A stretch of DNA of 64,000 nt. Source: Forficula auricularia. Lineage: Eukaryota; Arthropoda; Insecta; Dermaptera; Forficulidae. Shown one piece after another: positions 3,154 through 64,000 of this stretch. The position numbers were made by a program, and so were the translations under genes. The stretch lies in the NCBI GenBank assembly GCA_024734495.1, contig JALMQS010000104.1:496001-560000 (forward strand). Direction: 5' to 3'. The notes beneath the pieces were generated by a model, which was not told the DNA's origin, did no database searches, and saw nothing but the letters and a program-made list of their open reading frames with translations. How positions within the stretch are numbered: position 1 is the first letter of the stretch; every line of letters begins with the position of its first letter.

Positions 3154-3380
3154 ATTGGATAAAAATACTTGGTAGGTTTCACATTAAGATATAAAAATAT
3201 AAAACGAATTTATTTTTGGAGAATCTTTAATCTCGATATATATATTTCGGGTGACTAACCCATCTTCAGGAGAAACAGAAGGTAACTGACTTTTTATATC
3301 TTAATGTGAAACCTACCAAGTATTTTTATCCAATAATTTTAAAAAATGTTTCACCAAGTACCAACACCAAATTCCTTAAA
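3154..3380 (-). mobile_element. Hammerhead-bearing foldback repeat inside Tigger
   Basis: Bases 3154-3197 (ATTGGATAAAAATACTTGG onward) are the inverse of 3291-3335, giving a ~44-bp stem with a ~95-base loop region that contains a hammerhead motif. On the minus strand the element starts with the family head GGTGTTGGTAC(C/T)TGGTGAAACAT, also seen near 10080, 14450, 21440 and 63510, followed by GGTAGGTTTCAC. It separates the Tigger C-terminus from the R2-like fragment. Confidence 0.75.
3228..3275 (-). ncRNA. Hammerhead ribozyme motif, type I-like
   Basis: On the minus strand the core reads CTGAAGA (complement of 3263-3269), a stem-loop GGGT-TAGTC-ACCC, GAAA (complement of 3245-3248), a short TA-rich stem III, then ATC before the predicted cleavage point (C opposite g3235). 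Stem I is open: TCTC before CTGAAGA pairs with GAGA after the cleavage C. All invariant hammerhead core positions are present. Stem III is very short, as in hammerheads described from Penelope-like elements and retrozymes. Activity is not shown. Confidence 0.7.
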
Positions 3381-5787: not shown

Positions 5788-5819
5788 TATATATATTTAT
5801 TAAAAAAAATCATTTCTTG

Positions 5820-5965
5820 CTTTAATTGAAAAGTTTTTGTTTTGCCGAGAGTAGCAGAGTTGTTGATTCACAAAGAGAAACAAAGAGGCTGTCCTCTGCT
5901 TGATGCAAATAAACATACACACATATATACTATATATCGAGATGATATATCTGTATATATATTAT
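5820..5965. repeat. Single arm of the 19.1-kb foldback family
   Basis: The stretch with GCCGAGAGTAGCAG, AGAGAAACAAAGAGG, TCCTCTGCTTGATGC and the ATATCGAGATGATATATC tract is the same as one arm of the palindrome at 19030-19275. Here only one arm is present. Confidence 0.7.
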
Positions 5966-5994
5966 TTATTTGTTTGAGACTATAATTTCTTGCT

Positions 5995-11866: not shown

Positions 11867-11934
11867 TTAGAAATCATAAGTTTCCTGTATTTGTTTGATT
11901 CGATCGCGAATCGAATGCAGATGATTTTTGTCAA

Positions 11935-14220
11935 ATATTAAGTGAAAATAATATCCGAATTTATATATTTCTAACTTGAAATAATGAAGTTAATTTTCTC
12001 ATTAATATATCAAAGAATAATTAACACATTAACGAGAATTGTTTTTGATCGCGCTTTTTAAACAAGAGATACCTGGTGAGTTTTTACTTTTATCCAATGC
12101 GAAGCATGGGAGAAAGTATTGTAATCTCGTCTCGCGGCAAGCGCCGACTTCGAAGTGTCCCCAGGTAAAGACTTGCGGAACCCATAGACTCCAATTAAGG
12201 TCACAAATTGAAGTATTCAATGAGATTGATTTTTAGCACGTGACGGTTTTAAGCCAAAATTACCTGGAATCTCGTCGAGAGGCCATGCGCGCCATTTTTT
12301 TTGGAGGTGCATTGGGGAGGGACCTAGTGTGTGTGTGTTATCGTTTTTTTCGTCCACGATTTTCCACACCTTTGCGCTGATTGAAATGAAATTGAAAACC
12401 TACCATTAGTTTAACAAAATGAAGCGCTGATTAGTTTTTGGTACATATTGGTCCACAAACATTAGTACTTTATTTCAGTACTTTCTTAGTTTTTTCTAAA
12501 TATCTTGAAAATGACTTAACCAATTTTGATGAAATTTAATATCCTAATTAAGTACCTTGGGGGCCACAAAAAAGGTTAAATAAAGTTTTTAGTAAAATTA
12601 TATTTTTAAGTACTTTACTCAAAAACATATTAATATTTCAAATGAATTTGGATAAAGTTTAGCAACGATCCGTTGCAGTTTATTTATCTTGAGACAGTCT
12701 TATAATTCAAAAACAGTGCATTATATGGAAAAAAGTTTCAAATAAAAGTTTGTTTATATCGAGAGGGAAACTAAACTACTCTATTGTTTGTCGACCTAGA
12801 ACAAGCTTTCAAGGGTATTTTAATGTCAAGTTCTTGTTTTTAAATAGAACCCTATATTTTTCATATACGTCTACTTGATTCTACAAAAAAACTGAACCCT
12901 TTCATAAGAACTATTTTTGTACACATCAAATAAACAAAATACATGAATTAATTAGATCTCAAAAAAAATCTTAATAATTATTTTTAACAATTATTTAACT
13001 TAATTTTCAAATAATAATGATTAAACAATTAATTATTAAATAAATAATCTTTAAATCGAAAAGTCAAAATAATGAAAATAAGTGTTTATAATGATATTAA
13101 AACTTCTTTATACTCAGATTTAAGAGATTATTTTCTACTTAATAGAACTAGTTAAAATTCTTGAGTTTAAAAAAGTTTATTTCTCGTGTCAATCCAGTGG
13201 ATAGTTATATTTGTATTACCATAATAAAAATGGAGCATTTTTTTGTTGAACACAGAATTAAAATGGTCTAAATTTTTGCAGTGAAAGTGGAAGAAGTGTT
13301 ATGAGGCTGCCATTGAAATGAATGCCGATCGTTTTCCTGATAGGAATATACCCTCACAAGCTTCATTTGATTGAGGAAATGTAAAGGCTACGAAGAAACT
13401 AGAACAGGCCAAAATAAGGAAATTGGAACTGGAATTCATCCAGAAGACTTGCAATAAATTCTGGAATGTCTCAGAACAGTGTCGAAAAATTATTAAATTA
13501 TTAATTATTATTACATTATTTATTTATTTATTTTTTTTTTTTAAAGGGAGAAGGTTTTTTTTCCCCTTCCTGGCTTTTGGTCAGAACCATTTAGCCAATC
13601 ACATTCTTTGTATTATTTTATAATTTTAAATATTTACACTAGCCCTTAATACAAATCTCTGAAGAGCCATCACAACTTTTTCACTGCACTCACACAAGGA
13701 CAAAAGATAATCACTATTTATTGGGAATTTTACACTTTCGTTGATTTCACAGTATAGCAATTGTGTCCACTTTTTGTTTAGCTCACATACATTATTTATT
13801 TAATGTCGAATAAAAAAAATAGTTCTTATCAAAGTTGTTTAGAATTTTATGTAGATTAAGTAGACGTATAGAAAAATATAGGGTTCTATTTAAAAAACAG
13901 AACTTGACATTGAAATACCCTTGAAAGCTTGTTCTACGTCGACAAACAATATCGTAGTTTGGTTTCCCCCTCGATATAAATAAACTTTTATTTGAAACTT
14001 TTTTCCATTTAATGCACTGTTTGTGAATGATAAGACTGTCTCAAGATAAAAAACTCACCCGGTATATCGCGAGACTACTGCTGGGTTGAAACTATTAGAG
14101 TCTGCTGAGTCTTAAGTCTAAACCAAGAGAGATGAAAAAGATATGATCCATTTGGCTGTAATCCAGCATCGCTTCGCGTTAATGTGTTAATTATTCTTTG
14201 ATATATTAATGAGAAAATTA
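11935..14220. mobile_element. Foldback of the GATCGCGC family split by a later insertion
   Basis: The left half (to 12071) has ATTAACACATTAACGAGAAT and GATCGCGCTTTTTAAACAAG. The right half (14063-14220) has TATCGCGAGACTACTGCTGG and CATCGCTTCGCGTTAATGTG. The intact family member at 33990-34464 shows the two halves joined as AAACAAGATATATATGGCGA, which gives an empty site for the TA-flanked element between them. Confidence 0.7.
12072..14062 (+). mobile_element. Long-TIR TA-inserting element, copy P1
   Basis: The ends CCTGGTGAGTTTTTACTTTT and (inward from the right) CCGGGTGAGTTTTTTATCTT are bordered by TA. Long inner inverted repeats follow (12678 on, and back from 14062), containing TTGAGACAGTCTTATAA and TTGTTTGTCGACCTAGAACA. 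In the centre (about 13266-13440, plus strand) a broken frame reads AAIEMNADRFPDRN, a DUF4817-like helix-turn-helix remnant. About 600 bp of unrelated sequence (12090-12670) sits inside the left terminus; it includes a (GT)n tract near 12330 and the phrase AACCAATTTTGATGAAATT. Confidence 0.7.
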
Positions 14221-14433: not shown

Positions 14434-14907
14434 TTAAAGATGTTTCACCTTGCACCAACACCGCAATCTCTACTAATTATATTTACTAGCCTTAGCTCTC
14501 AGGATCGAAAACGTCAGCAGAAGGCTGAATAAATATATTAAACCGAGATTTTGGCCGGAATTTTCTTTTCTTCGATAAATAAAGACTATAAATTTTTTAT
14601 TAGTTTATTATATTTAAGCTTAGTACCAGAGCAGAATTATCTAAAATCTTAAAATTTTTACTTTTTCCTCAATCAATAACTATTATATCCTGAAGATACC
14701 GCAAATTGCTGAGCAATATCTATTAAAGCCGACGTTCTTGCAATGGAAAAATATTAAAAGCAACTTATTGGATGTTTTTTCTTGGAGACAGACTTATAGA
14801 TATAGAACTGAGGATTGAATGGAAGACAATCCAAGATCCAAGGATAAATAAAAAGATGGATGTTTCGCAACAAAAGAAAATATATTGGAACCTTTTCTTT
14901 TTATACT

Positions 14908-14957
14908 TTTTAACCGACATTTCGAATCATCTTTCCTCCTTCTTCAGGGTTCAAATG
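14908..14957 (-). ncRNA. Degenerate hammerhead motif (copy B, minus)
   Basis: The minus strand has CCCTGAAGAAGGAGG, GAAATGTC and GGTTAAAAAG. Stem I pairs (AACC/GGTT), and CTGAAGA and GAAA are intact. Stem II is broken here (GGAGG opposite GATTC) and in the other arm, so activity is unlikely. Confidence 0.55.
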
Positions 14958-14989
14958 AAGGAAAATTATTACATGCTTCCTTCATTGAC

Positions 14990-15040
14990 CTTTTAAACTC
15001 TGAAGAGGGAGCGAAGATCATCCGAAATTCCAGTTCAAAA
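14990..15040 (+). ncRNA. Degenerate hammerhead motif (copy B, plus)
   Basis: CTGAAGA at 15001-15007, then GGGAGCGAAGATCATCC, GAAA, TTCC and AGTTC. Stem I can pair (AACT/AGTT), but the conserved UH at the cleavage site is replaced by CC. It faces the minus-strand motif at 14908-14957, giving the inverted pair typical of this family. Confidence 0.5.
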
Positions 15041-15854
15041 GTATAAAAAGAAAAAGTTCCAATAAATTTTTTATGGTAATCATCTTTATATTAGTATATA
15101 CCGGATGAGTTTTTTATCTTGAGACAGTCTTATAACTCAAAAACAGTGCATTATATGAAAAAAAGTTTCAAATAAAAGTTTATTTAAATGGAGTGGAAAC
15201 TAAACTACGCTATTGTTTGTTTACCTAGAACAAGCTTTCAAGGGTATTTCAAGGTCAATTTCCTTTTTTTTTAATGGAATCCTATATATTTATTTACATA
15301 TTCTGAATCTACGAAAAAAACTGAACAACTTTCATAAGAACTATTTTTTTATTCGACATCAAATAAACAAAGTATTAAATCAATTATATCTCAGAAAAAA
15401 ACCTAATAATTATTTTTAACAATTATTCAACTTAATTATCATATAATAATGATCAAATATTTAATTAGGATGAATTCCTTTACATTTCCTAATATTTTTT
15501 TAAACAGATTTACAACACCATAAAATAAGGCTTGGAAGGGTGTATTCCTATCAGAAAAACGCTCGGCATCCATTTCAATGGCAGCCCCATAACACTTCTT
15601 CCACATTCACCATAAATTATGACCATTTTATGATAATTCTGTCTAAAACAAAAAAATGATCTATTTTTATTATAGTAATACAATATAACTATCTACTGGA
15701 TTGACACGAGAAATCAACTTTTTTAAACTCAAGAATTTTAAGTAGTTCTAATAAGTAGAAAATAATCTCTTAAATCTGTGTATGATGAAGTTTTATAAAT
15801 ACTTATTTTCATTGTTTTGACTTTTCGATTTAATAATTATTTATTTAATAATTA

Positions 15855-17430
15855 ATTTTTTTTTTTTTTTTTTTTTATGATAATGATGAGAGAAGGAGTT
15901 ACACCAAAAAAGGTGCAACCCCTAAAGGCCTGGGTTGGCCCCTCCATCGTGAAAAGAAGAAGAAAGAATTTTATGGGTTGGGCGGGGGTCGAAGGTATCT
16001 GTGGATACGGGTCTTAAATAGCTGAAGGTTATAGGTCGCGGGAAAGATGGTGGCAGGGAGCGAGTTCCAGTCTCTGGAGGTCAAAGGGATAAAAGAGTTG
16101 GCGAAAGCGCTTGTTCGAATTTTATCCAATTTGACAGCGAAGGGGTGCTGAGCGTTAGAAAACCGCGTGTTTCGCGTAAAGAGGGCATTAGGGGGGATAA
16201 TTGATTTCAGCTCGACTGAACAGACACCGTGATAGTATCTGTAGTACAGGGAAAGGGCAGAAACGGTTCTTCGGTGAGCCAGGGAGTCGAGTGAGTTGGT
16301 TAGAGCCGGTTCTCCTATTAGTTTAATTGCTCGCTTCTGAATTGCATCCAGTGTGGCAAGAGAATGCTTGGAGGCACCCCTCCACAGATGAGAGCCATAT
16401 TCGAGACAGGGACGAATTTGAGCCTTATACAGCATAAGGAGTTGACTGGGAGTATAACAGCGTCTAGACCTAAATAGGAGACCAAGCTTGCGCGCTGCAG
16501 CTTTAGCAGTGGTTGAGATATGGTCATTCCATGAAAGGTCAGACCCTAGAGTTACGCCTAGCATTGAAATTTTATCCCTGAATTCTAGTGAGTTTGAGTC
16601 GAATGATATATTTGGGAGGTTTCTGTCGACGCGCCTAGAAATAAGGCAACACTGAGTTTTCCCTGCATTGAAGTTAACTAAGTTTTGGGATCCCCAGTTT
16701 TTAAGTTTGCATAAGTCTAAATTAATTGAAGAGGCAATGTCTGCACGGTTTTTATGCGATGCAGGGGCGTTATGTAGGGTGCTGTCATCTGCGTAACAAT
16801 GTACCGGATTGGAGGGCAAGTTTAGAAGGTCGTTGATATAGATAAGAAAAAGCGTAGGGGAGATAACCGATCCCTGAGGAACTCCAGCGTTGGTGTGGAA
16901 GGGGGAAGATGATATTCCATCGATGACAACCTTAATACTACGGTCTGAAAGAAAACTTTCGAGCAACTTACAGAGTTTCGGTGCAAGGCCGACGGAGGTC
17001 AATTTGGCAAGAAGATTTTTGTGCCAGACCATATCGAAGGCTTTTGAAATGTCTAAAGCTACCGCGAGGGTCTCATTCCCGGCCTCCAAGGTTTTGTTCC
17101 AGATATGAGTTACATATGCTAGGATGTCACCTGTCGACCGGGATTGCCTGAAGCCGTATTGCCTATCGTGGATAAATTTATTTGACTCTAAGTGTCGTAG
17201 AACTTGCTCGTTGATGGCCTTTTCCATAATTTTGGATAAGACAGAAGTGATTGCTATGGGTCGATAGTTTTTTATGTTGGAAGAATCGCCTTTTTTCTTA
17301 ATTGGTTGGATTCTGGCTAGTTCTCCAGGCTTCCGGAAATATTCCAGAGTTATAGGAGAGATTGTATAATTTGGATAGGAGCAAGTTCAGGGGCACATTT
17401 TTTAATGAGAATGGCAGGGATATCGTCGGT
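15855..17430 (-). mobile_element. Non-LTR retrotransposon (jockey/CR1-like), 5' truncated
   Basis: On the minus strand the element begins inside the reverse-transcriptase domain near 17430 and ends in a 3' UTR with CTCCTTCTCTCATCATT and a poly-A tail (poly-T at 15855-15877). A second copy of just the tail lies at 11251-11345. The 5' part (17228-17430) still encodes KNYRPIAITSVLSKIMEK and the region before it, but with a frameshift near 17350. Confidence 0.88.
15971..17227 (-). pseudogene. LINE reverse transcriptase, C-terminal 418 residues
   Basis: The open frame carries the RT motifs in order: YGFRQSRSTGDILA (about residue 24), LDISKAFDMVWH (about 78), AGVPQGSVISPTLFLIYIND (about 133), the catalytic CYADDSTLH (about 164), KTQCCLISRR, LGVTLGSDLSWNDHI, and a tail with RPCLEYGSHLWRGASK. 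The spacing fits jockey/CR1-type ORF2. Endonuclease and N-terminal RT blocks are missing by 5' truncation and upstream frameshift, so it is a fragment although 418 codons are uninterrupted. Its mirror at 43144-44400 encodes an identical protein. No promoter is expected. Confidence 0.88.
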
Positions 17431-17842
17431 TTAATCATTATTATTTGATAATTAAGCTGAATAATTGTTAAAAATAATTATTAGGGGTTTTTCTGATTGA
17501 TTTAATATTTTGTTTATTTGATGTCGAATAAAAAAATAGTTCTTATGAAAGTTGTTCAGTTTTTTTGTAGATTCAGAATATGTAAACAAATATATAGGTT
17601 TCCATTTAAAAAACAGAACTTGACCTTGAAATACCCTTGAAAACTTGTTCTAAGTAAACAAACAATAACGTAGTTTAGTTTCCCCCTAGATATAAATAAA
17701 CTTTTATTTGAAACTTTTTTTCATAAAATGCACCTTTTTTGAGTTATAAGACTGTCTCAAGATAAAAAACTCACCCGGTATATATAGTATATATCCTTGG
17801 ACTGATTGCCTTCCATTTAATCCTCAGTTATTAAAAGCAACC

Positions 17843-18410
17843 TTTAAATATAAAATATCTTTTCTTGACATAATTTTTTTTAACCACATTCGGGTCCAAC
17901 GCAAGGAACAAGGGACCTCATGGCCCTTGAATCTTTACGCCTCACCTATAAGTTCCCTCCTTCTTGCACATATTCATTTCTACCCTCTTATTTATTTATT
18001 TTATTTGCTCTTTTTAGATTAATTCTTCTTCTCTGGAAATCTCCATCTCCTGTGAGCTGATCCTCCATCATCTGCTACCACTAGGATTAGGATCTTTTCT
18101 CCTAATAGTAAGTTTCTCCTATTGATTGATGCATTCTTATTCTATATATAACTTTGCCTAGCTAATTTTAAATTAATATCCATGATTTCTTTTGAATTTA
18201 GCTGAGTCTGAATAATTAATAATTTATATACAGAAATAATCGTTTACTTTTATTTAAATGATTTCGTCTTAAAATCAAAAAAATTATTAAAACTGTATTT
18301 TTCTTAATACATGTTTTGGATATTTTTGTTTCTCCATTTTCTGTTAATTTTTTTTAATATAAACATCTCTCTTTCTAAAAATAATAGCAATATTATAAAA
18401 AGTATAATTG
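17843..18410. repeat. Non-coding; first copy of a ~50-bp direct repeat (18172-18225)
   Basis: ATCCATGATTTCTTTTGAAT and the following TAGCTGAGTCTGAATAATTA occur at 18172-18225 and again at 18783-18835, flanking the hammerhead foldback C at a distance. The rest of the interval shows no gene. Confidence 0.6.
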
Positions 18411-18501
18411 AAGGTAATGGAAGGCAGCCCAGGGGTAGTCAGGAAAGAAAAATTAACACATATCCAAATAAGGTGTAATTTATTGGAATCCTTCCTCCTT
18501 T

Positions 18502-18557
18502 CCTTTCAAACCGACATTTCGGAGGATTCTTCCCTCCTTCTTCATGGTTTCAAGGGG
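18502..18557 (-). ncRNA. Hammerhead motif, inactivated (copy C, minus)
   Basis: On the minus strand stem II GGAGG/CCTCC and GAAA are kept, but the core CTGAAGA reads ATGAAGA in both arms (loss of the invariant first C). In this arm the following GTC is preceded by T rather than C. Self-cleavage should be abolished. Confidence 0.65.
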
Positions 18558-18631
18558 TCAATGATGGAAACAAATAAAATGCTTCCTTCCTCTCTCCACA
18601 ACAGTGTTTTCATTTTTTCATTTTTCATTGA

Positions 18632-18687
18632 CCCTTTGAAATCCTGAAGAAGGAGGGAAGAATCCTCCGAAACGTCGATTTGAAAGG
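18632..18687 (+). ncRNA. Hammerhead ribozyme motif, type I, complete core
   Basis: CTGAAGA (18644-18650), stem II GGAGG-GAAGAAT-CCTCC, GAAA (18669-18672), minimal stem III, and GTC with predicted cleavage after c18676. Stem I has five pairs (AAATC/GATTT), a G-G mismatch, then five more (CCTTT/AAAGG). All conserved core positions are present. The sequence is identical in the other arm. The very short stem III (A-CG-U) is like Penelope-associated minimal hammerheads. Confidence 0.8.
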
Positions 18688-19029
18688 AAAGGAGGAAGGA
18701 TTCCAATAAATTGCACCTTATTTGATATTTGTTAATTTTTTCTTTCCTCACTACCCCTGGGCTGCCTTCCATTACATTCAATTAAAATCCATGATTTCTT
18801 TTGAATTTAGCTGAGTCTGAATAATTAATAACTTTTAGTTCTACTTGTCCGTCTCTCTCCAGAGAAAATTTCGTTACAGATAAAAATTATATATATATAA
18901 AAAAAATATATATATATATGAAGGATTATTGTAATAACATAACAAGCCACGTGATTTTTAAAAAATACTTTATTCATTGCCTTTTATCCAACCATAGCTG
19001 ATAGGAATCGAAAAAAGCACACATTAAAA

Positions 19030-19275
19030 ATACTTACAAAGAGAAACAAAGAGTTGTCCTCTGCTTGATGCAAATAAACATACACACATATATATCGAGA
19101 TGATATATCTGTATATATATTATTTATTTCATCAAACAAATAAATAATATATATACAGATATATCATCTCGATATATATGTGTGTATGTTTATTTGCATC
19201 AAGCAGAGGACAACCTCTTTGTTTCTCTTTGTGAATCAACAACTCTGCTACTCTCGGCAAAACAAAAACTTTTCA
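19030..19275. mobile_element. Foldback with ATCGAGATGATATATC core
   Basis: AGAGAAACAAAGAG, TCCTCTGCTTGATGC, CAAATAAACATACACACAT and the ATATATCGAGATGATATA tract are mirrored around 19133, giving ~100-bp arms. Single arms recur at 5820-5965 and, diverged, at 31425-31470 and 22160-22300. Non-coding. Confidence 0.8.
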
Positions 19276-19854
19276 ATTAAAAATACTAGCTACCAAAAAT
19301 CTGTGGTAATTAATTTTATAGATTTTTCTAAAACTTTGAACCCTTTTATGTTATCATTTTTGTGCCTTATGTTATTGCAATAAGCCCTTTATAAATGAAA
19401 TTATATAAATGTACATTATATAAAGACACTTATTCCATTTTTTAATTACATACCAATTAGAAATAAATGTCCCAAAACATGTGTAAAGAAAATACAATTT
19501 TAATACATTTCTTGTCGTTTTTTTATTTATAATATTTAACTGCTGTTTGTATTGAAAAATATTCAAGAAATATTTATTTTTATATGTTATAAATCATGAG
19601 TATTAATTTGAATTCTAATCAGCAGCATAAAATTAACCATTTATTTTTTTGCTGAATTTTGTTTCTATTCACCCCATGAATATACCTTGATTCTTCTTTC
19701 TTTTTTTATCCTTGTAACATTGAAATATTTTGATTCTTTAATTTATTTGGTAGTTTTGAAAATAGACAATCTATTTGTTGAATGTTTGGTTAAATTGTAA
19801 ATCTCAAACTAATAATATCGAATCAATTCTCAATCACTTCTATTTAATAAATTT

Positions 19855-20445
19855 TTATAATTTTTCTAACTAATATAACAAAGAATAATTGCCATATCAA
19901 TGAGAATTGTTTTGACCGCGCTTATTTAAGATTATTATTTCAAGTTAGAAATATAAATATAAGTTCAAATATTATTTTCACTCAATATTTGACAAAAATT
20001 CCCTACAGTTGATTCGCGATTGAATCAAATGTAGAAAACATTCGATTAATTTATGGCAAGCATCTAACATACATGCTAATAGACCGAGCGCTCTGGGCTG
20101 GGAGATTGAATATATAACATCTGAGATTTCAAATTCACTTGGTGATCCATCCGAATGTCTAGCGGGCTATACGCGAAATGACGTTGGATTGTAGCTAAGT
20201 GGATCCATCTTTTTCTCTCTTGGTCCTTGGACTTAAGACTCCACAGACTTCAATAGCATAATCCGCAGTAGTCTCGTGATAAATATCTTTTTCAAATAAG
20301 CGCGGTCAAAACAATTCTCATTGATATGGCAATTATTCTTTGTTATATTAGTGAGAAAAATTAGTTCAAATATTATTTTCACTCAATATTTGACAAAAAT
20401 TCCCTACAGTTGATTCGCGATTGAATCAAATGTAGAAAACATTCG
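19855..20445. mobile_element. GATCGCGC-family foldback plus 83-bp direct repeat
   Basis: CATATCAATGAGAATTGTTT and TGACCGCGCTTATTT (19880-19930) are the inverse of 20300-20345. Adjacent is a direct repeat of 83 bp (19962-20044 and 20363-20445) with CAGTTGATTCGCGATTG. The middle (20050-20290) carries GCAGTAGTCTCGTG and ACTTAAGACTCCACAGAC as in the 33990-34464 copy. No coding frame. Confidence 0.7.
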
Positions 20446-20566: not shown

Positions 20567-21075
20567 AAAATTTCTAAAGAAATCACGAAATATTGTCGAC
20601 TTATAACCCCGAGCGTTTGGGGTTCGATTCCCAAGGGGTCAATACCACCACACTGCTCACATGGAATAAAAAATTATCCATAACATATTAGAAGTATTTT
20701 ATTTTTGGAGAGACTGGTAGAATTTCAATGGAGAATCGATAGAAGGCAGCCCAAGGATAATGAAAAAAAATTCCTATTAAAACAAATTTATTGGAACGTT
20801 ATTTTTTCATCTTAAAAATTGAAGTTTAGGAGAATCTTCCCCCCTTCTTCAGGGTTTAAAAGGGTCAACGAAGGAAACATACAGAATACTTTCTTCTTCT
20901 TTCCTTCAGCAGTGCTTGAAATTTGCTCTTTTTTAACAGAAACATCAATAGAATTTGTTTCTTAAATTAAATTAATTATCCTTGGGCTTCCTCCCATCAA
21001 TTCTCTCCAGTGATTATCAATAATAACTGCTCGGATTTAGAAGACGACAATCTCTCGTTATTTCTTTAGAAATAT
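20567..21075. mobile_element. tRNA-related foldback carrying hammerhead-family copy D
   Basis: TTTCTAAAGAAATCACG (left) is inverted at 21055-21073. The left arm holds a pol III B-box GGTTCGATTCC at 20621-20631 within a T-arm-like stem, so a tRNA or tRNA-SINE contributed. Inside, 20695-21015 is hammerhead-family copy D: AGGCAGCCCAAGGATAAT at one side and TTATCCTTGGGCTTCCT at the other. Its minus-strand motif has CCCTGAAGAAGG but TAAA instead of GAAA, hence degenerate. Confidence 0.6.
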
Positions 21076-23543: not shown

Positions 23544-23643
23544 NNNNNNNNNNNNNNNNNNNNNNNNNNNNNNNNNNNNNNNNNNNNNNNNNNNNNNNNN
23601 NNNNNNNNNNNNNNNNNNNNNNNNNNNNNNNNNNNNNNNNNNN
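23544..23643. other. Assembly gap (100 N)
   Basis: A run of exactly 100 N, the usual convention for a gap of unknown size. The last bases before it match the right arm down to 36828. The first bases after it belong to the leader of the gypsy-type element, so that element's 5' LTR is missing from the assembly here. Confidence 0.98.
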
Positions 23644-33989: not shown

Positions 33990-34464
33990 TTAAATATATT
34001 TATAATTTTCTCATTAATATATTTAAGAATAATTAACACATTAACGAGAATTGTTTTGATCGCGCTTATTAAACAAGATATATATGGCGAGACTATTGCT
34101 GGTTGAAGCTATTGGAGTCTGCTGAGTCTTAAGTCTGGACCAGAGAGAATGAAAAAGATGTGATCCATTTGGCTATAACCCAGCATCATTTCGCGAATGG
34201 CCCGCATGACACTTTTCATATCAAACATCATATCACTGTTTGATATAAAAAGGCTGGCCATTCGCGAAATGATGCTGGATTATAGCCAAATGGATCACAT
34301 CTTTTCATTCTCTTTGGTCCAGACTTAAGACTCAGCAGACTCCAATAGCTTCAACCAGCAATAGTCTCGCCATATATATCTTGTTTAATAAGCGCGATCA
34401 AACAATTCTCGTTAATGTGTTAATTATTCTAAATATATTAATGAGAAAATTATAAATGTATTTA
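33990..34464. mobile_element. Intact GATCGCGC-family foldback (~475 bp)
   Basis: TATAATTTTCTCATTAATAT, GATCGCGCTTATTAAACAAG, GGCGAGACTATTGCTGG, CTTAAGTCTGGACCAGAGAG and ATCATTTCGCGAATGG form a left arm mirrored to 34464. The loop is about 34205-34250. This uninterrupted copy provides the empty-site reference for the split copies at 11935-14220 and 46156-48445. Confidence 0.85.
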
Positions 34465-39295: not shown

Positions 39296-39804
39296 TTTCT
39301 AAAGAAATAACGAGAGATTGTCGTCTTCTAAATCCGAGCAGTTATTATTGATAATCACTGGAGAGAATTGATGGGAGGAAGCCCAAGGATAATTAATTTA
39401 ATTTAAGAAACAAATTCTATTGATGTTTCTGTTAAAAAAGAGCAAATTTCAAGCACTGCTGAAGGAAAGAAGAAGAAAGTATTCTGTATGTTTCCTTCGT
39501 TGACCCTTTTAAACCCTGAAGAAGGGGGGAAGATTCTCCTAAACTTCAATTTTTAAGATGAAAAAATAACGTTCCAATAAATTTGTTTTAATAGGAATTT
39601 TTTTTCATTATCCTTGGGCTGCCTTCTATCGATTCTCCATTGAAATTCTACCAGTCTCTCCAAAAATAAAATACTTCTAATATGTTATGGATAATTTTTT
39701 ATTCCATGTGAGCAGTGTGGTGGTATTGACCCCTTGGGAATCGAACCCCAAACGCTCGGGGTTATAAGTCGACAATATTTCGTGATTTCTTTAGAAATTT
39801 TAAG
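39296..39804. mobile_element. tRNA-related foldback with hammerhead copy D, right arm
   Basis: Mirror of 20567-21075. On the plus strand the degenerate hammerhead has CTGAAGA at 39516-39522, GGGGGGAAGATTCTCC and TAAA in place of GAAA. The B-box is on the minus strand near 39741-39751. Confidence 0.6.
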
Positions 39805-39925: not shown

Positions 39926-40516
39926 ATGTTTTCTACATTTGATTCAATCGCGAATCAACTGTAGGGAATTTTTGTCAAATATTGAGTGAAAATAATATTT
40001 GAACTAATTTTTTCTCACTAATATAACAAAGAATAATTGCCATATCAATGAGAATTGTTTTGACCGCGCTTATTTGAAAAAGATATTTATCACGAGACTA
40101 CTGCGGATTATGCTATTGAAGTCTGTGGAGTCTTAAGTCCAAGGACCAAGAGAGAAAAAGATGGATCCACTTAGCTACAATCCAACGTCATTTCGCGTAT
40201 AGCCCGCTAGACATTCGGATGGATCACCAAGTGAATTTGAAATCTCAGATGTTATATATTCAATCTCCCAGCCCAGAGCGCTCGGTCTATTAGCATGTAT
40301 GTTAGATGCTTGCCATAAATTAATCGAATGTTTTCTACATTTGATTCAATCGCGAATCAACTGTAGGGAATTTTTGTCAAATATTGAGTGAAAATAATAT
40401 TTGAACTTATATTTATATTTCTAACTTGAAATAATAATCTTAAATAAGCGCGGTCAAAACAATTCTCATTGATATGGCAATTATTCTTTGTTATATTAGT
40501 TAGAAAAATTATAAAA
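39926..40516. mobile_element. GATCGCGC-family foldback, right arm
   Basis: Mirror of 19855-20445, including the 83-bp direct repeats (39926-40008 and 40327-40409). Confidence 0.7.
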
Positions 40517-41341: not shown

Positions 41342-41682
41342 TTAATGTGTGCTTTTTTCGATTCCTATCAGCTATGGTTGGATAAAAGGCAATGAATAAA
41401 GTATTTTTTAAAAATCACGTGGCTTGTTATGTTATTACAATAATCCTTCATATATATATATATTTTTTTTATATATATATAATTTTTATCTGTAACGAAA
41501 TTTTCTCTGGAGAGAGACGGACAAGTAGAACTAAAAGTTATTAATTATTCAGACTCAGCTAAATTCAAAAGAAATCATGGATTTTAATTGAATGTAATGG
41601 AAGGCAGCCCAGGGGTAGTGAGGAAAGAAAAAAATTAACACATATCAAATAAGGTGTAATTTATTGGAATCCTTCCTCCTTT

Positions 41683-41738
41683 CCTTTCAAATCGACGTTT
41701 CGGAGGATTCTTCCCTCCTTCTTCAGGATTTCAAAGGG
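41683..41738 (-). ncRNA. Hammerhead ribozyme motif, type I, complete core (right arm)
   Basis: The minus strand is identical to 18632-18687: CTGAAGA (complement of 41720-41726), GGAGG/CCTCC stem II, GAAA, ACGTC, and an extended stem I. Confidence 0.8.
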
Positions 41739-41812
41739 TCAATGAAAAATGAAAAAATGAAAACACTGTTGTGGAGAGAGGAAGGAAGCATTTTATTTGT
41801 TTCCATCATTGA

Positions 41813-41868
41813 CCCCTTGAAACCATGAAGAAGGAGGGAAGAATCCTCCGAAACGTCGGTTTGAAAGG
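41813..41868 (+). ncRNA. Hammerhead motif, inactivated (copy C, right arm)
   Basis: ATGAAGAAGGAGGG then CCTCCGAAACGTCGG. The first core C is A as in the left arm, but the ACGTC at the cleavage site is intact here, so this base differs between arms. Confidence 0.65.
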
Positions 41869-42940
41869 AAAGGAGGAAGGATTCCAATAAATTACACCTT
41901 ATTTGGATATGTGTTAATTTTTTCTTTCCTGACTACCCCTGGGCTGCCTTCCATTACCTTCAATTATACTTTTTATAATATTGCTATTATTTTTAGAAAG
42001 AGAGATGTTTATATTAAAAAAAATTAACAGAAAATGGAGAAACAAAAATATCCAAAACATGTATTAAGAAAAATACAGTTTTAATAATTTTTTTGATTTT
42101 AAGACGAAATCATTTAAATAAAAGTAAACGATTATTTCTGTATATAAATTATTAATTATTCAGACTCAGCTAAATTCAAAAGAAATCATGGATATTAATT
42201 TAAAATTAGCTAGGCAAAGTTATATATAGAATAAGAATGCATCAATCAATAGGAGAAACTTACTATTAGGAGAAAAGATCCTAATCCTAGTGGTAGCAGA
42301 TGATGGAGGATCAGCTCACAGGAGATGGAGATTTCCAGAGAAGAAGAATTAATCTAAAAAGAGCAAATAAAATAAATAAATAAGAGGGTAGAAATGAATA
42401 TGTGCAAGAAGGAGGGAACTTATAGGTGAGGCGTAAAGATTCAAGGGCCATGAGGTCCCTTGTTCCTTGCGTTGGACCCGAATGTGGTTAAAAAAATTAT
42501 GTCAAGAAAAGATATTTTATATTTAAAGGTTGCTTTTAATAACTGAGGATTAAATGGAAGGCAATCAGTCCAAGGATATATACTATATATACCGGGTGAG
42601 TTTTTTTATCTTGAGACAGTCTTATAACTCAAAAAAGGTGCATTTTATGAAAAAAAGTTTCAAATAAAAGTTTATTTATATCTAGGGGGAAACTAAACTA
42701 CGTTATTGTTTGTTTACTTAGAACAAGTTTTCAAGGGTATTTCAAGGTCAACTTCTGTTTTTTAAATGGAAACCTATATATTTGTTTACATATTCTGAAT
42801 CTACAAAAAAACTGAACAACTTTCATAAGAACTATTTTTTTATTCGACATCAAATAAACAAAATATTAAATCAATCAGAAAAACCCCTAATAATTATTTT
42901 TAACAATTATTCAGCTTAATTATCAAATAATAATGATTAA

Positions 42941-44515: not shown

Positions 44516-45410
44516 TTAATTATTAAATAAATAATTATTAAATCGAAAAGTCAAAACAATGAAAATAAGTATTTATAAAACTTCATCATACACAGATTTA
44601 AGAGATTATTTTCTACTTATTAGAACTACTTAAAATTCTTGAGTTTAAAAAAGTTGATTTCTCGTGTCAATCCAGTAGATAGTTATATTGTATTACTATA
44701 ATAAAAATAGATCATTTTTTTGTTTTAGACAGAATTATCATAAAATGGTCATAATTTATGGTGAATGTGGAAGAAGTGTTATGGGGCTGCCATTGAAATG
44801 GATGCCGAGCGTTTTTCTGATAGGAATACACCCTTCCAAGCCTTATTTTATGGTGTTGTAAATCTGTTTAAAAAAATATTAGGAAATGTAAAGGAATTCA
44901 TCCTAATTAAATATTTGATCATTATTATATGATAATTAAGTTGAATAATTGTTAAAAATAATTATTAGGTTTTTTTCTGAGATATAATTGATTTAATACT
45001 TTGTTTATTTGATGTCGAATAAAAAAATAGTTCTTATGAAAGTTGTTCAGTTTTTTTCGTAGATTCAGAATATGTAAATAAATATATAGGATTCCATTAA
45101 AAAAAAAGGAAATTGACCTTGAAATACCCTTGAAAGCTTGTTCTAGGTAAACAAACAATAGCGTAGTTTAGTTTCCACTCCATATAAATAAACTTTTATT
45201 TGAAACTTGTTTTCATATAATGCACTGTTTTTGAGTTATAAGACTGTCTCAAGATAAAAAACTCATCCGGTATATACTATATAAAGATGATTACCATAAA
45301 AAATTTATTGGAACTTTTTCTTTTTATACTTTTGAACTGGAATTTCGGATGATCTTCGCTCCCTCTTCAGAGTTTAAAAGGTCAATGAAGGAAGCATGTA
45401 ATAATTTTCC

Positions 45411-45466
45411 TTCATTTGAACCCTGAAGAAGGAGGAAAGATCATACGAAATGTCGGTTAAAAAGTA
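45411..45466 (+). ncRNA. Degenerate hammerhead motif (copy B, right arm)
   Basis: CTGAAGA at 45423-45429, GAAA at 45447-45450, TGTC then GGTT pairing with AACC upstream. Stem II is broken (GGAGG opposite CATAC). Confidence 0.55.
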
Positions 45467-45944
45467 TAAAAAGAAAAGGTTCCAATATATTTTCTTTTGT
45501 TGCGAAACATCCATCTTTTTATTTATCCTTGGATCTTGGGATTGTCTTCCATTCAATCCTCAGTTCTATATCTATAAGTCTGTCTCCAAGAAATCACATC
45601 GATTTAGTTGCTTTTAATATTTTTCAATTCATGCAAGAATGTCAGCTTTAATAGATATTTCTCACCAATTTGCGGTATCTTCAGGATATAATAGATATTG
45701 ATTGAGGAAAAAGTAAAAATTTTAGGACTAGGTCGCCAGATAATTCTGCTCTGGTACTAAGCTTAAATATAATAAACTAATAAAAAATTTATAGTCTTTA
45801 TTTATCGAAGAAAAGAAATTCCGGCCAAAATCTCGGTTTAATATATTTATTCAGCCTTCTGCTGACGTTTTCGATCCTGAGAGCTAAGGCTAGTAAATAT
45901 AATTAGTAGAGATTGTGGTGTTGGTGCAAGGTGAAACATCTTTA

Positions 45945-57028: not shown

Positions 57029-57044
57029 AACATTTTTTAAAATT

Positions 57045-57228
57045 ATTGGATAAAAATACTTGGTAGGTTTCACATTAAGATATAAAAAGTCAGTTACCTT
57101 CTGTTTCTCCTGAAGATGGGTTAGTCACCCGAAATATATATATCGAGATTAAAGATTCTCCAAAAATAAATTCGTTTTATATTTTTATATCTTAATGTGA
57201 AACCTACCAAGTATTTTTATCCAATAAA
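57045..57228 (+). mobile_element. Hammerhead-bearing foldback in Tigger, right arm
   Basis: Stem 57045-57088 with its inverse at 57182-57226; head GGTGTTGGTACTTGGTGAAA at 57010. Confidence 0.75.
57103..57150 (+). ncRNA. Hammerhead ribozyme motif (Tigger-embedded, right arm)
   Basis: CTGAAGA at 57110-57116, stem II GGGT/ACCC, GAAA at 57131-57134, TA-rich mini stem III, predicted cleavage after c57144. Stem I TCTC (57106-57109) pairs with GAGA (57145-57148). Identical to the left arm. Confidence 0.7.
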
Positions 57229-62836: not shown

Positions 62837-63294
62837 GCTTTTATTTTTTTATTTTTGTTTACTGCTCTTTCAACCTATTTCTATTTTATATGAAAGATAT
62901 TAATTTGCCGATGGTAATAGATTCAAATTGATGACACCATCTTATGATTTTCTAGTAGTATTTCTATTTTAAAGTTGCATTTTGATTTTGGGTCTTTTGT
63001 AGTATTTCAGTTCTTCTTTTACATTTATAGATGAATATTTTGTGCTATTTAAAATGTATTTTGTTGAAAATTTAGCGACTTCCCCTATGGAAATTTAAGT
63101 TTTGCTGGAAATTCTCAGTTCAAAGACTTGTGAGCTATGAGAATTAATTTTTTTTTATAATAATTTCTTCTTATTAGAACTGCCTTTGAAAGTTTAAAAT
63201 TTTCAAAAATAATTTTGAAATAAATGCTAAGTACTTACTATTTGTGCAAATTTCTTAGATTCTATATTGTTCAAGTTATAAAATTTGAGTCTTT
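62837..63294. other. AT-rich, nothing recognised
   Basis: No open frame, repeat or RNA motif seen. Confidence 0.5.
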
Positions 63295-63540
63295 ATTTTT
63301 ATATAATAATAAAACTTGAGGAAAGAGAGGACAAAAAGAAATAAAAAAAAATTGAGTTTTGAATTCGATATATTTCGGGGGTGAGTCCATCATCAGGAGG
63401 CAAAGAAAAATGTTTTGAAAATTCAAAACTCAATTTTGTTTTATTTCTTTTTTTGTGAAACCTACCACGCATCTTTCTAAGTTTTATTATTATATTAAAA
63501 TGTTTCACCTAGAACCAACACTTAACTCCTTAAAAGTTGT
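63295..63540 (-). mobile_element. Hammerhead-family foldback outside the inverted repeat
   Basis: AAAAAGAAATAAAAAAAAAT and TGAGTTTTGAATT (63331-63366) are inverted at 63418-63455. On the minus strand it starts with head GGAGTTAAGTGTTGGTTC-TAGGTGAAACAT, then GGTAGGTTTCAC, stem, hammerhead, stem. Same plan as the Tigger-embedded copy, so the family is dispersed independently of the giant repeat. Confidence 0.75.
63361..63402 (-). ncRNA. Hammerhead motif with CTGATGA core
   Basis: The minus strand has CTGATGA (complement of 63390-63396), a short imperfect stem II (GG...CC), GAAA (complement of 63373-63376), and TATATC with predicted cleavage opposite g63367. Stem I offers only two pairs next to the core, so activity is doubtful. 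Confidence 0.55.
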
Positions 63541-64000
63541 GTATTTTTATCATTTAATGCTAATTTTGCAACAATTTAGCCTCCCTCACCACCTTGATAT
63601 TGATGCATGATGTACCAAAAAGGTGCAATCTGTTGGAAAAGCTTGCAATTCGGATAAGAGAGTTTAAGAGGATTATTGATTTTATCACGCCAGAACAAAC
63701 ACCATGACATAATATTTATTTAAAATCTGAAAATGAAACAAATTTAAATTTTTTTCATTTAAATTATAATTTTACTAATACATGCACCTGAACATTTAAC
63801 ATGTCATACATTTATAAGCTTTTTTTTTGAGAGCCTAAAATTATATTTTGCGAGGGGCCGGACTAGCACTATGAACATGTTGATGTATCATTGAGAAATC
63901 TGGCTTTTGCAAATAGTAAATCATCATCTGCTTTACCAGAAGCCGAAAATAAATATAAATATTGGGGAAGCAAAATATGCCATTTTAAATTTTTATAAAA
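63541..64000. other. AT-rich, nothing recognised
   Basis: No gene or clear repeat. GCGAGGGGCCGGACTAGC at 63851 is a GC patch of unknown origin. Confidence 0.5.

What the first reader, a model, noticed from the sequence alone, without database searches (positions are those of the whole stretch)
18411..18781. Foldback retroposon family carrying paired, opposed hammerhead ribozymes
Copy C is a ~370-bp palindrome in which each arm holds a type I hammerhead motif on opposite strands. The plus-strand one (18632-18687) has a full core, a 5-bp stem II, minimal stem III and a long stem I. The minus-strand one lost the invariant first C. Copies A, B and D in the arms, and separate foldbacks at 3154-3380 and 63295-63540, share the plan: head (GTGTTGGTTCAAGG-TGAAACAT), stem, hammerhead tip, inverse stem, tail. 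Hammerheads are known in Penelope-like elements and retrozymes. A dispersed foldback with two opposed ribozymes is not something I can match to a named family. Seen: motifs and palindromes. Inferred: one family, mobilised as RNA.
Basis: partly seen in the sequence, partly recalled or inferred. Interest (0 to 1): 0.88.

Follow-up and report, generated by a model that had tools for sequence, protein, structure and literature searches.

The report
Penelope insertions with ribozyme-cleavage footprints
The palindromes look like by-products of a known group of jumping genes (Penelope-like retrotransposons), and some of them end exactly where the element's own RNA-cutting ribozyme should cut, which suggests that the ribozyme works in the living animal.

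Summary
In detail: 18405-18784 is a foldback with a complete type I hammerhead on the + strand and a decayed one on the - strand; a strict descriptor found none in 200 random windows. It is probably not a new kind of retroposon. It has the plan of a Penelope-like element (PLE) insertion: two 5'-truncated pseudo-LTR copies joined head to head, a ~40-nt tail on one arm, target duplications of variable length. The same unnamed 1.06-Gb genome holds tandem PLEs with RT, GIY-YIG and minimal hammerheads, and a foldback of one of them (P1) lies 250 bp away. No ORF-bearing partner of family C was found. Turn-round points differ between copies, so foldbacks are probably made at insertion. New here: arms that start at the hammerhead scissile bond. 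P1 genome-wide counts: 407 at the bond, 102 and 112 one nucleotide either side; 12 of 15 inspected were breaks. Family C: raw counts equal (136 v 132), but 11 of 20 inspected were breaks at the bond (two of them ambiguous) and 0 of 10 beside it. This reads as a footprint of in vivo self-cleavage in a minority of templates. No RNA data were available.

The parts
18396..18608 (-). Family C, antisense (tail-less) arm; template positions 22-234; carries the decayed hammerhead (ATGAAGA)
18607..18788 (+). Family C, sense arm; template positions 51-229
18632..18687 (+). Complete type I hammerhead (PLE-type, no stem III loop); predicted scissile bond after 18676
18839..18875 (+). One-sided tail of family C, split from the arm by a ~50-bp stretch (about 18786-18834) that repeats 18176-18224
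19036..19129 (-). PLE family P1 foldback, tail-less arm (P1 239-333)
19132..19232 (+). P1 foldback, sense arm; starts at P1 233, the first nucleotide after the predicted hammerhead scissile bond
19233..19281 (+). P1 one-sided tail; shared flank ATTAAAAATACT at 19023-19034 / 19276-19287, of which the first 6 letters overlap the tail end (target duplication of 6-12 bp)
14877..15070 (.). Related short foldback of a second family with a hammerhead-like motif in each arm (14947-, 15000+), stem II weak
3154..3380 (.). Foldback of another pLTR family; hammerhead-like motif at the tip (about 3231-3272, minus strand), tail at the right end
63295..63540 (.). Same plan; hammerhead-like motif about 63361-63400, minus strand (read by eye), tail at the right end
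5816..5989 (-). P1 arm with tail (P1 221-387)
41585..41966 (-). Mirror image of copy C in the other arm of the giant inverted repeat (not an independent insertion)

Best explanation
The foldbacks are 5'-truncated insertions of Penelope-like elements. Shown: two copies of the pLTR region (hammerhead plus ~100 nt downstream) are joined head to head, mostly between short repeats of the target, with a tail on one arm. Inferred, from the in vitro PLE of PMC11167929: the PLE protein nicks both target strands and primes a cDNA from each. One cDNA starts at the outer RT start site (leaving the tail), the other at the inner site (no tail). Each runs towards the 5' end of the RNA, and the two are joined there. 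The two arms of a P1 copy often end at the same template position, so perhaps one RNA is copied twice. The hammerheads are the pLTR ribozyme of the PLE, duplicated and opposed by this joining. In a minority of insertions arms start exactly at the scissile bond, best read as run-off at the 5' end of an RNA that had already cut itself.
For: Autonomous tandem PLE in the same genome: L081, 858-aa frame with RVT_1 and GIY-YIG, pLTR with hammerhead; 150 scored GIY-YIG matches of 3423 candidates, eight in open frames of 825-864 aa. Relaxed hammerhead motif in 14 of the 20 fetched GIY-YIG loci, five of them with the loop-less GAAACGTT that resembles family C's GAAACGTC. A foldback of the L081 pLTR lies in the window. 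One tail only: 28 of 28 C copies (tail score 26-35 of 35 on one side, 5-9 on the other) and 13 of 13 P1 foldbacks with both outer ends visible (in one, L088, the arms lie 230 nt apart). Target repeats. Turn-round differs. Coinciding inner ends in P1, e.g. (233,233), (145,145), (98,98), (30,30). No separate arm lineages. Scissile-bond ends: P1 407 v 102 and 112, with 12 of 15 inspected being breaks at the bond, 2 of 6 and 1 of 6 beside it. Family C: 11 of 20 at the bond, 0 of 10 beside it, plus two foldbacks with both arms at the bond (L154, L155). Stem II of the P1 hammerhead changes A-T to G-C at two pairs with G.U intermediates. Published PLE plan.
Against: No ORF-bearing PLE with the family C pLTR was found, and no search for one was answered. 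In 27 tail-anchored P1 arms only 3 end at the scissile bond (one of them at 232 or 233), and none of 8 more does; other ends are as common or commoner. In 8 of those 27 no partner arm was aligned in the ~380 nt fetched (one, L131, has a partner by eye), so not every insertion need be a foldback; a single-arm C insertion exists (L076). In L132 the tail-less arm aligns 14 nt or so into the tail. None of 56 arms of 28 full-length C copies ends at the bond, but these were picked by length. Raw counts for family C are not raised (136 v 132); only inspection separates them. Some junctions are ambiguous: in L158 and L160 (family C) letters at the join fit both arms, and in four P1 arms the first T could belong to the other arm. 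Some P1 foldbacks have unequal inner ends. No RNA was seen. PMC11167929 found cleavage not needed in vitro and saw no RNA-seq ends at the site.
Confidence: 0.8

Rival explanations
1. A master foldback is transcribed and retroposed as one hairpin RNA; loops vary because palindrome centres are deleted after insertion.
For: Many similar full-length copies (40 scored of 3249 candidates); palindrome centres are known to be unstable (recalled); eight private variants are shared by both arms in six of 28 copies.
Against: Arms do not form separate 5' and 3' lineages. Either arm may be the longer one. P1 copies with arms 98-100% identical to L081 turn round at different positions (L084 at 233, L125 at 98, L085 at 110/174). 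A segmental duplicate pair kept nearly the same centre (L017/L021).
Confidence: 0.12
2. A palindromic MITE or foldback DNA transposon that picked up a hammerhead-like stretch.
For: Long inverted repeats, short size, no coding capacity seen.
Against: The two ends are unequal (tail on one side only) and shared flanks vary from about 9 to 17 bp; the genome holds an ORF-bearing PLE with the same anatomy.
Confidence: 0.02
3. Arms end at the scissile bond because the reverse transcriptase stops at ribozyme structure, or because joining favours that place, and not because the RNA was cut.
For: Stops at structure are common for reverse transcriptases (recalled); a few joins share one or more letters between the arms (seen).
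Against: The enzyme meets the 3' strand of stem I first; in family C that lies about 10 nt downstream of the bond, yet breaks are at the bond, and 0 of 10 sites inspected one nucleotide away were breaks. Two families with different sequences agree.
Confidence: 0.17
4. Metazoan non-LTR retrozyme (small tandem repeats with canonical type I hammerheads spreading through circular RNA).
For: Size and low G+C fit; PLEs are proposed helpers (PMC7229834, PMC7761336).
Against: Copies are head to head and not tandem; the hammerhead has no stem III loop, as described for PLEs.
Confidence: 0.06

Closest known systems
Penelope-like elements, Penelope/Poseidon type with GIY-YIG endonuclease (PMC3846280 passages, PMC11167929 parts 1-2 of 4)
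   Same: Head-to-head inverted pLTRs, optional ~30-40-nt tail on one of them, short target duplications, minimal hammerhead in the pLTR, tandem autonomous copies in the genome
   Different: Here many short pairs without ORF; one tail in each foldback checked (28 of 28 C, 13 of 13 P1); arms ending at the hammerhead scissile bond, which I did not find reported
Non-LTR retrozymes of animals (PMC7229834, parts 1-3 of 6)
   Same: Small, non-coding, type I hammerhead, presumed PLE help
   Different: Tandem and not inverted, canonical hammerheads, circular RNA intermediate
Twin-primed LINE-1 insertions (recalled, no call)
   Same: Second target end primes a second cDNA, giving an inverted segment
   Different: LINE-1 twin priming copies different parts of one RNA; here both arms cover the same part up to two neighbouring start sites

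Membership tests
Penelope-like element insertion | Source element encodes RT plus GIY-YIG endonuclease | tested here: met
   P1 only: L081 frame of 858 aa, RVT_1 and GIY-YIG
Penelope-like element insertion (family C itself) | ORF-bearing relative with the same pLTR and tail | not tested
   Searches meant for it did not complete; none seen in the loci held
Penelope-like element insertion | Tandem copies with pLTR between ORFs | tested here: met
   P1 only: L081, tandem period 2909 bp at 99.8%
Penelope-like element insertion | Minimal hammerhead in the pLTR | tested here: met
Penelope-like element insertion | Inverted head-to-head pLTRs, tail on one | tested here: met
   28 of 28 C copies, 13 of 13 P1 foldbacks with both ends visible
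Penelope-like element insertion | Short target duplications | tested here: met
   21 of 28 copies share 9 bp or more v 77 of 756 cross-pairs; not clear for the window's own copy C (8 bp at best)
Non-LTR retrozyme | Tandem repeats with canonical hammerhead including stem III | tested here: not met
   Inverted pairs and no stem III loop
Non-LTR retrozyme | Circular RNA intermediate | not testable with these tools
   no RNA data
MITE / foldback DNA transposon | Equal inverted ends with a fixed-length target duplication | tested here: not met
Catalytically active hammerhead | Self-cleavage at the predicted bond | tested here: inconclusive
   Genomic ends at the bond; no biochemical test

The most novel reading that the evidence does not exclude
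PLE hammerheads cut in the germ line, and the cut RNAs are used as templates. A GIY-YIG/RT complex copies the same RNA from both nicked target strands, once from each of two start sites, so that many insertions become fresh palindromes with one tail, whose centre records the 5' end (cut or uncut) of the RNA used. Such genomes then hold a nucleotide-resolution record of ribozyme activity.
Probability: 0.55. Interest if true: 0.78.

Novelty: new member of a known kind. Interest (0 to 1): 0.62.

Why it matters
[quoted passage not shown] If genomic arms end at the scissile bond at single-nucleotide resolution in two families, then cut RNAs serve as templates in animals, and other PLE-rich genomes can be used to measure it. 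The one-tail pattern and the coinciding inner ends also constrain how PLEs integrate, which is an open question.

Tried and rejected
Rejected: chance motif; MITE; microRNA genes suggested by Rfam hits in the foldbacks (all below gathering scores; long hairpins draw such hits, my inference); a new unrelated retroposon; the non-LTR reverse transcriptase next door (15971-17386, RVT_1, weak likeness to LINE-1 ORF2) as the mobiliser, set aside because no hammerhead or tail link was seen, not because it was excluded. Led nowhere: Rfam hammerhead family in the own genome (not completed); an own-genome search with 63280-63560 (not completed); a short P1 DNA query (0 candidates, its words are probably too common, says nothing); Cervera 2014 and Lunse 2017 are not held, so I know them only from citations. 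Novelty is judged from the listings of searches in an open-access library and from the papers read in part. Selection: the 30 C copies are the best-scoring of 3249 candidates, so biased to full-length foldbacks. L002 (mirror) and L021 (duplicate of L017) were dropped before the counts; one search dropped L002 only. The 44 P1 regions follow contig order from C3 to C4:11756980 of the places listed, but skip six listed sites beside GIY-YIG matches (C4 near 3.65, 4.87 and 10.58 Mb). The 27 tail-anchored sites are the first 27 of the list. L154 and L155 were fetched because their arms lie close together and are not in the 20.

Full report
WHAT IS THERE. Copy C (18405-18784) is a foldback, 85.6% self-complementary. 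The + strand holds a complete type I hammerhead (core at 18644, stem II GGAGG/CCTCC, GAAAC-GTC, predicted bond after 18676), and the - strand one has lost its first C. Alone the + strand motif folds with stems I and II around the core, z-score only -1.76; in the RNA 18405-18890 it is buried in a -270 kcal/mol hairpin. A strict descriptor with the core letters and stems I and II finds this motif and its mirror only, and nothing in 200 Markov windows. Rfam is silent, but equally silent on PLE pLTR loci of this genome.

THE WINDOW. It is a 23.5-kb inverted repeat around a 13.3-kb centre with a 100-N gap. So 41585-41966, 45300-45493 and 57042-57228 mirror other copies and are not independent. The genome is 1.06 Gb in 845 contigs, unnamed.

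COPIES. The own-genome search scored 40 of 3249 candidates, and 30 were fetched. In sense orientation the outer ends are constant. One arm carries a tail (..CTACCAGTCCGTCTCTCTCCAGAGAAAATTTCGTTGC, often then a few A); the other stops near TTCAATT. In 28 copies (mirror L002 and duplicate L021 dropped) the tail scores 26-35 of 35 on one side and 5-9 on the other, and shared flanks of 9 bp or more occur in 21 of 28 against 77 of 756 cross-pairs. The centre differs between copies, and either arm can be the longer. Mean distances are 0.060 within a copy, 0.069 (sense-sense) and 0.084 (antisense-antisense) between copies, and 0.076 between kinds; 4 of 56 arms have their own partner as nearest; eight private variants are shared by both arms in six copies. 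Arms thus do not descend as two lineages.

LINK TO PENELOPE-LIKE ELEMENTS. The genome has 150 scored GIY-YIG matches of 3423 candidates, eight of them in open frames of 825-864 aa. A relaxed hammerhead motif was found in 14 of 20 fetched GIY-YIG loci. L081 is a tandem array with an 858-aa frame carrying RVT_1 and GIY-YIG. Its pLTR (P1) holds CTGATGA-TGAAGAC CAA GTCTTC-GAAACTATAGTC^TCAAAC. Another PLE type has GAAACGTT with no stem III loop, close to family C's GAAACGTC. The window has a P1 foldback at 19036-19281, 250 bp from copy C, with arms P1 239-333 and 233-382, a tail on one arm, and a shared flank of up to 12 bp, of which 6 overlap the tail end. Published PLE inserts have an inverted pLTR, an optional tail on one of the inverted pLTRs, short duplications and palindromes at the inverted junction (PMC3846280, passages). 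The in vitro PLE cuts and extends both strands and starts at two sites that bound the tail (PMC11167929, parts 1-2 of 4). The foldback plan is therefore known, and the paired ribozymes follow from it. In 13 of 13 P1 foldbacks with both outer ends visible exactly one arm has the tail; in one of them (L088) the arms lie 230 nt apart, and a 14th, L087, is a more complex triple and was left out. Inner ends often coincide (233/233, 145/145, 98/98, 90/92, 30/30), with exceptions such as 194/148, 110/174, 136/101 and 156/67. Foldbacks are not universal: a single-arm, tail-less C insertion exists (L076), and in 8 of 27 tail-anchored P1 sites no partner arm was aligned in the ~380 nt fetched (one, L131, has a partner by eye, and others may be cut off or diverged). 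In L132 the tail-less arm aligns some 14 nt into the tail.

SCISSILE-BOND ENDS, P1. The stretch 233-259 occurs 7794 times with up to one mismatch. Of 56 arms read in 44 regions, 7 start at 233 with no upstream match, one more has a substitution there, and two others break within the 45 nt before it. Genome-wide exact counts of arms whose next upstream letter is wrong: 407 at 233, 102 at 232, 112 at 234, reversed-pattern controls 0. Inspection of the first 16 listed sites at 233: 13 breaks (one the mirror of another, so 12 of 15, from ten loci) and 3 substitutions. At 232: 2 of 6 breaks, both also explained by a break at 233 with a chance C. At 234: 1 of 6. In four of the breaks at 233 the first T fits the other arm too, so 234 is possible there.

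SCISSILE-BOND ENDS, FAMILY C. Raw counts at the bond (position 118) and one nucleotide downstream are equal, 136 and 132. Inspection separates them. At the bond 11 of the first 20 listed are breaks (in L158 and L160 the joined letters fit both arms, so 9 are clear), 2 more join the 5' part of the hammerhead to the bond, and 7 are substitutions. At the control 0 of 10 are breaks. Two more foldbacks, fetched because their arms lie close together, have both arms at the bond (L154, L155).

AGAINST OVER-READING. In 27 tail-anchored P1 arms only 3 end at the bond (L084, L087, and L143 at 232 or 233), in 8 more none does, and other ends are as common or commoner. None of 56 arms of the length-selected C copies ends there. 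Cut RNAs would therefore be a minority of templates, consistent with the in vitro finding that unprocessed RNA is the main one.

RIBOZYME CONSTRAINT. Among 70 P1-type stem-loops (14 variants) two stem II pairs change A-T to G-C with G.U intermediates; a few variants break a pair. These are related copies, so this supports the fold but not present-day activity.

MECHANISM. Shown: head-to-head truncated pLTRs, one tail, target repeats, variable turn-round, ends at the bond. Inferred: two-ended target-primed reverse transcription from two neighbouring start sites, perhaps on one RNA, with run-off at its 5' end. Not shown: any RNA, any cleavage, any transposition.

LITERATURE. Read: parts 1-3 of 6 of PMC7229834 and parts 1-2 of 4 of PMC11167929; passages of PMC3846280, PMC12910113, PMC6155905, PMC7761336. 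The listings of searches (titles and abstract starts) pointed to no report of PLE insertion ends at hammerhead bonds, but subscription papers are missing.

Noticed in passing
window 1-23543 and 36828-60369: Near-perfect (99.4%) 23.5-kb inverted repeat with a 100-N gap at 23544-23643 just past the first arm; could be a real inverted duplication or a haplotype/assembly fold-back.
   Followed up: partly
window 18176-18224 and about 18786-18834: A ~50-bp stretch upstream of copy C is repeated between its arm and its tail; not seen in the other independent copies aligned.
   Followed up: no
window 33991-34464: A 94% palindrome of ~470 bp without any hammerhead-like motif in the scan; partial relatives at 20162-20391, 39977-40207, 11894-12071.
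   Followed up: no
window 20708-20938 and 39427-39656: Stretch 73% like the family C arm over template positions 3-246: perhaps an older or sister PLE pLTR.
   Followed up: no
window 15087-15457 and 17430-17791: Inverted ~370-bp repeats flank a non-LTR-type reverse transcriptase frame (15971-17386, RVT_1), with further relatives at 12677-13035.
   Followed up: partly
own genome, L017 and L021: Same insertion in a segmental duplicate, with nearly the same foldback centre: palindrome centres can stay stable after insertion.
   Followed up: partly
own genome, P1 tail: 7466 exact copies of a 26-nt P1 tail: this PLE family has expanded massively.
   Followed up: partly
P1 243-296 (pLTR of L081): The pLTR itself contains a local inverted repeat; several P1 foldbacks seem to turn round inside it (read by eye).
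   Followed up: no
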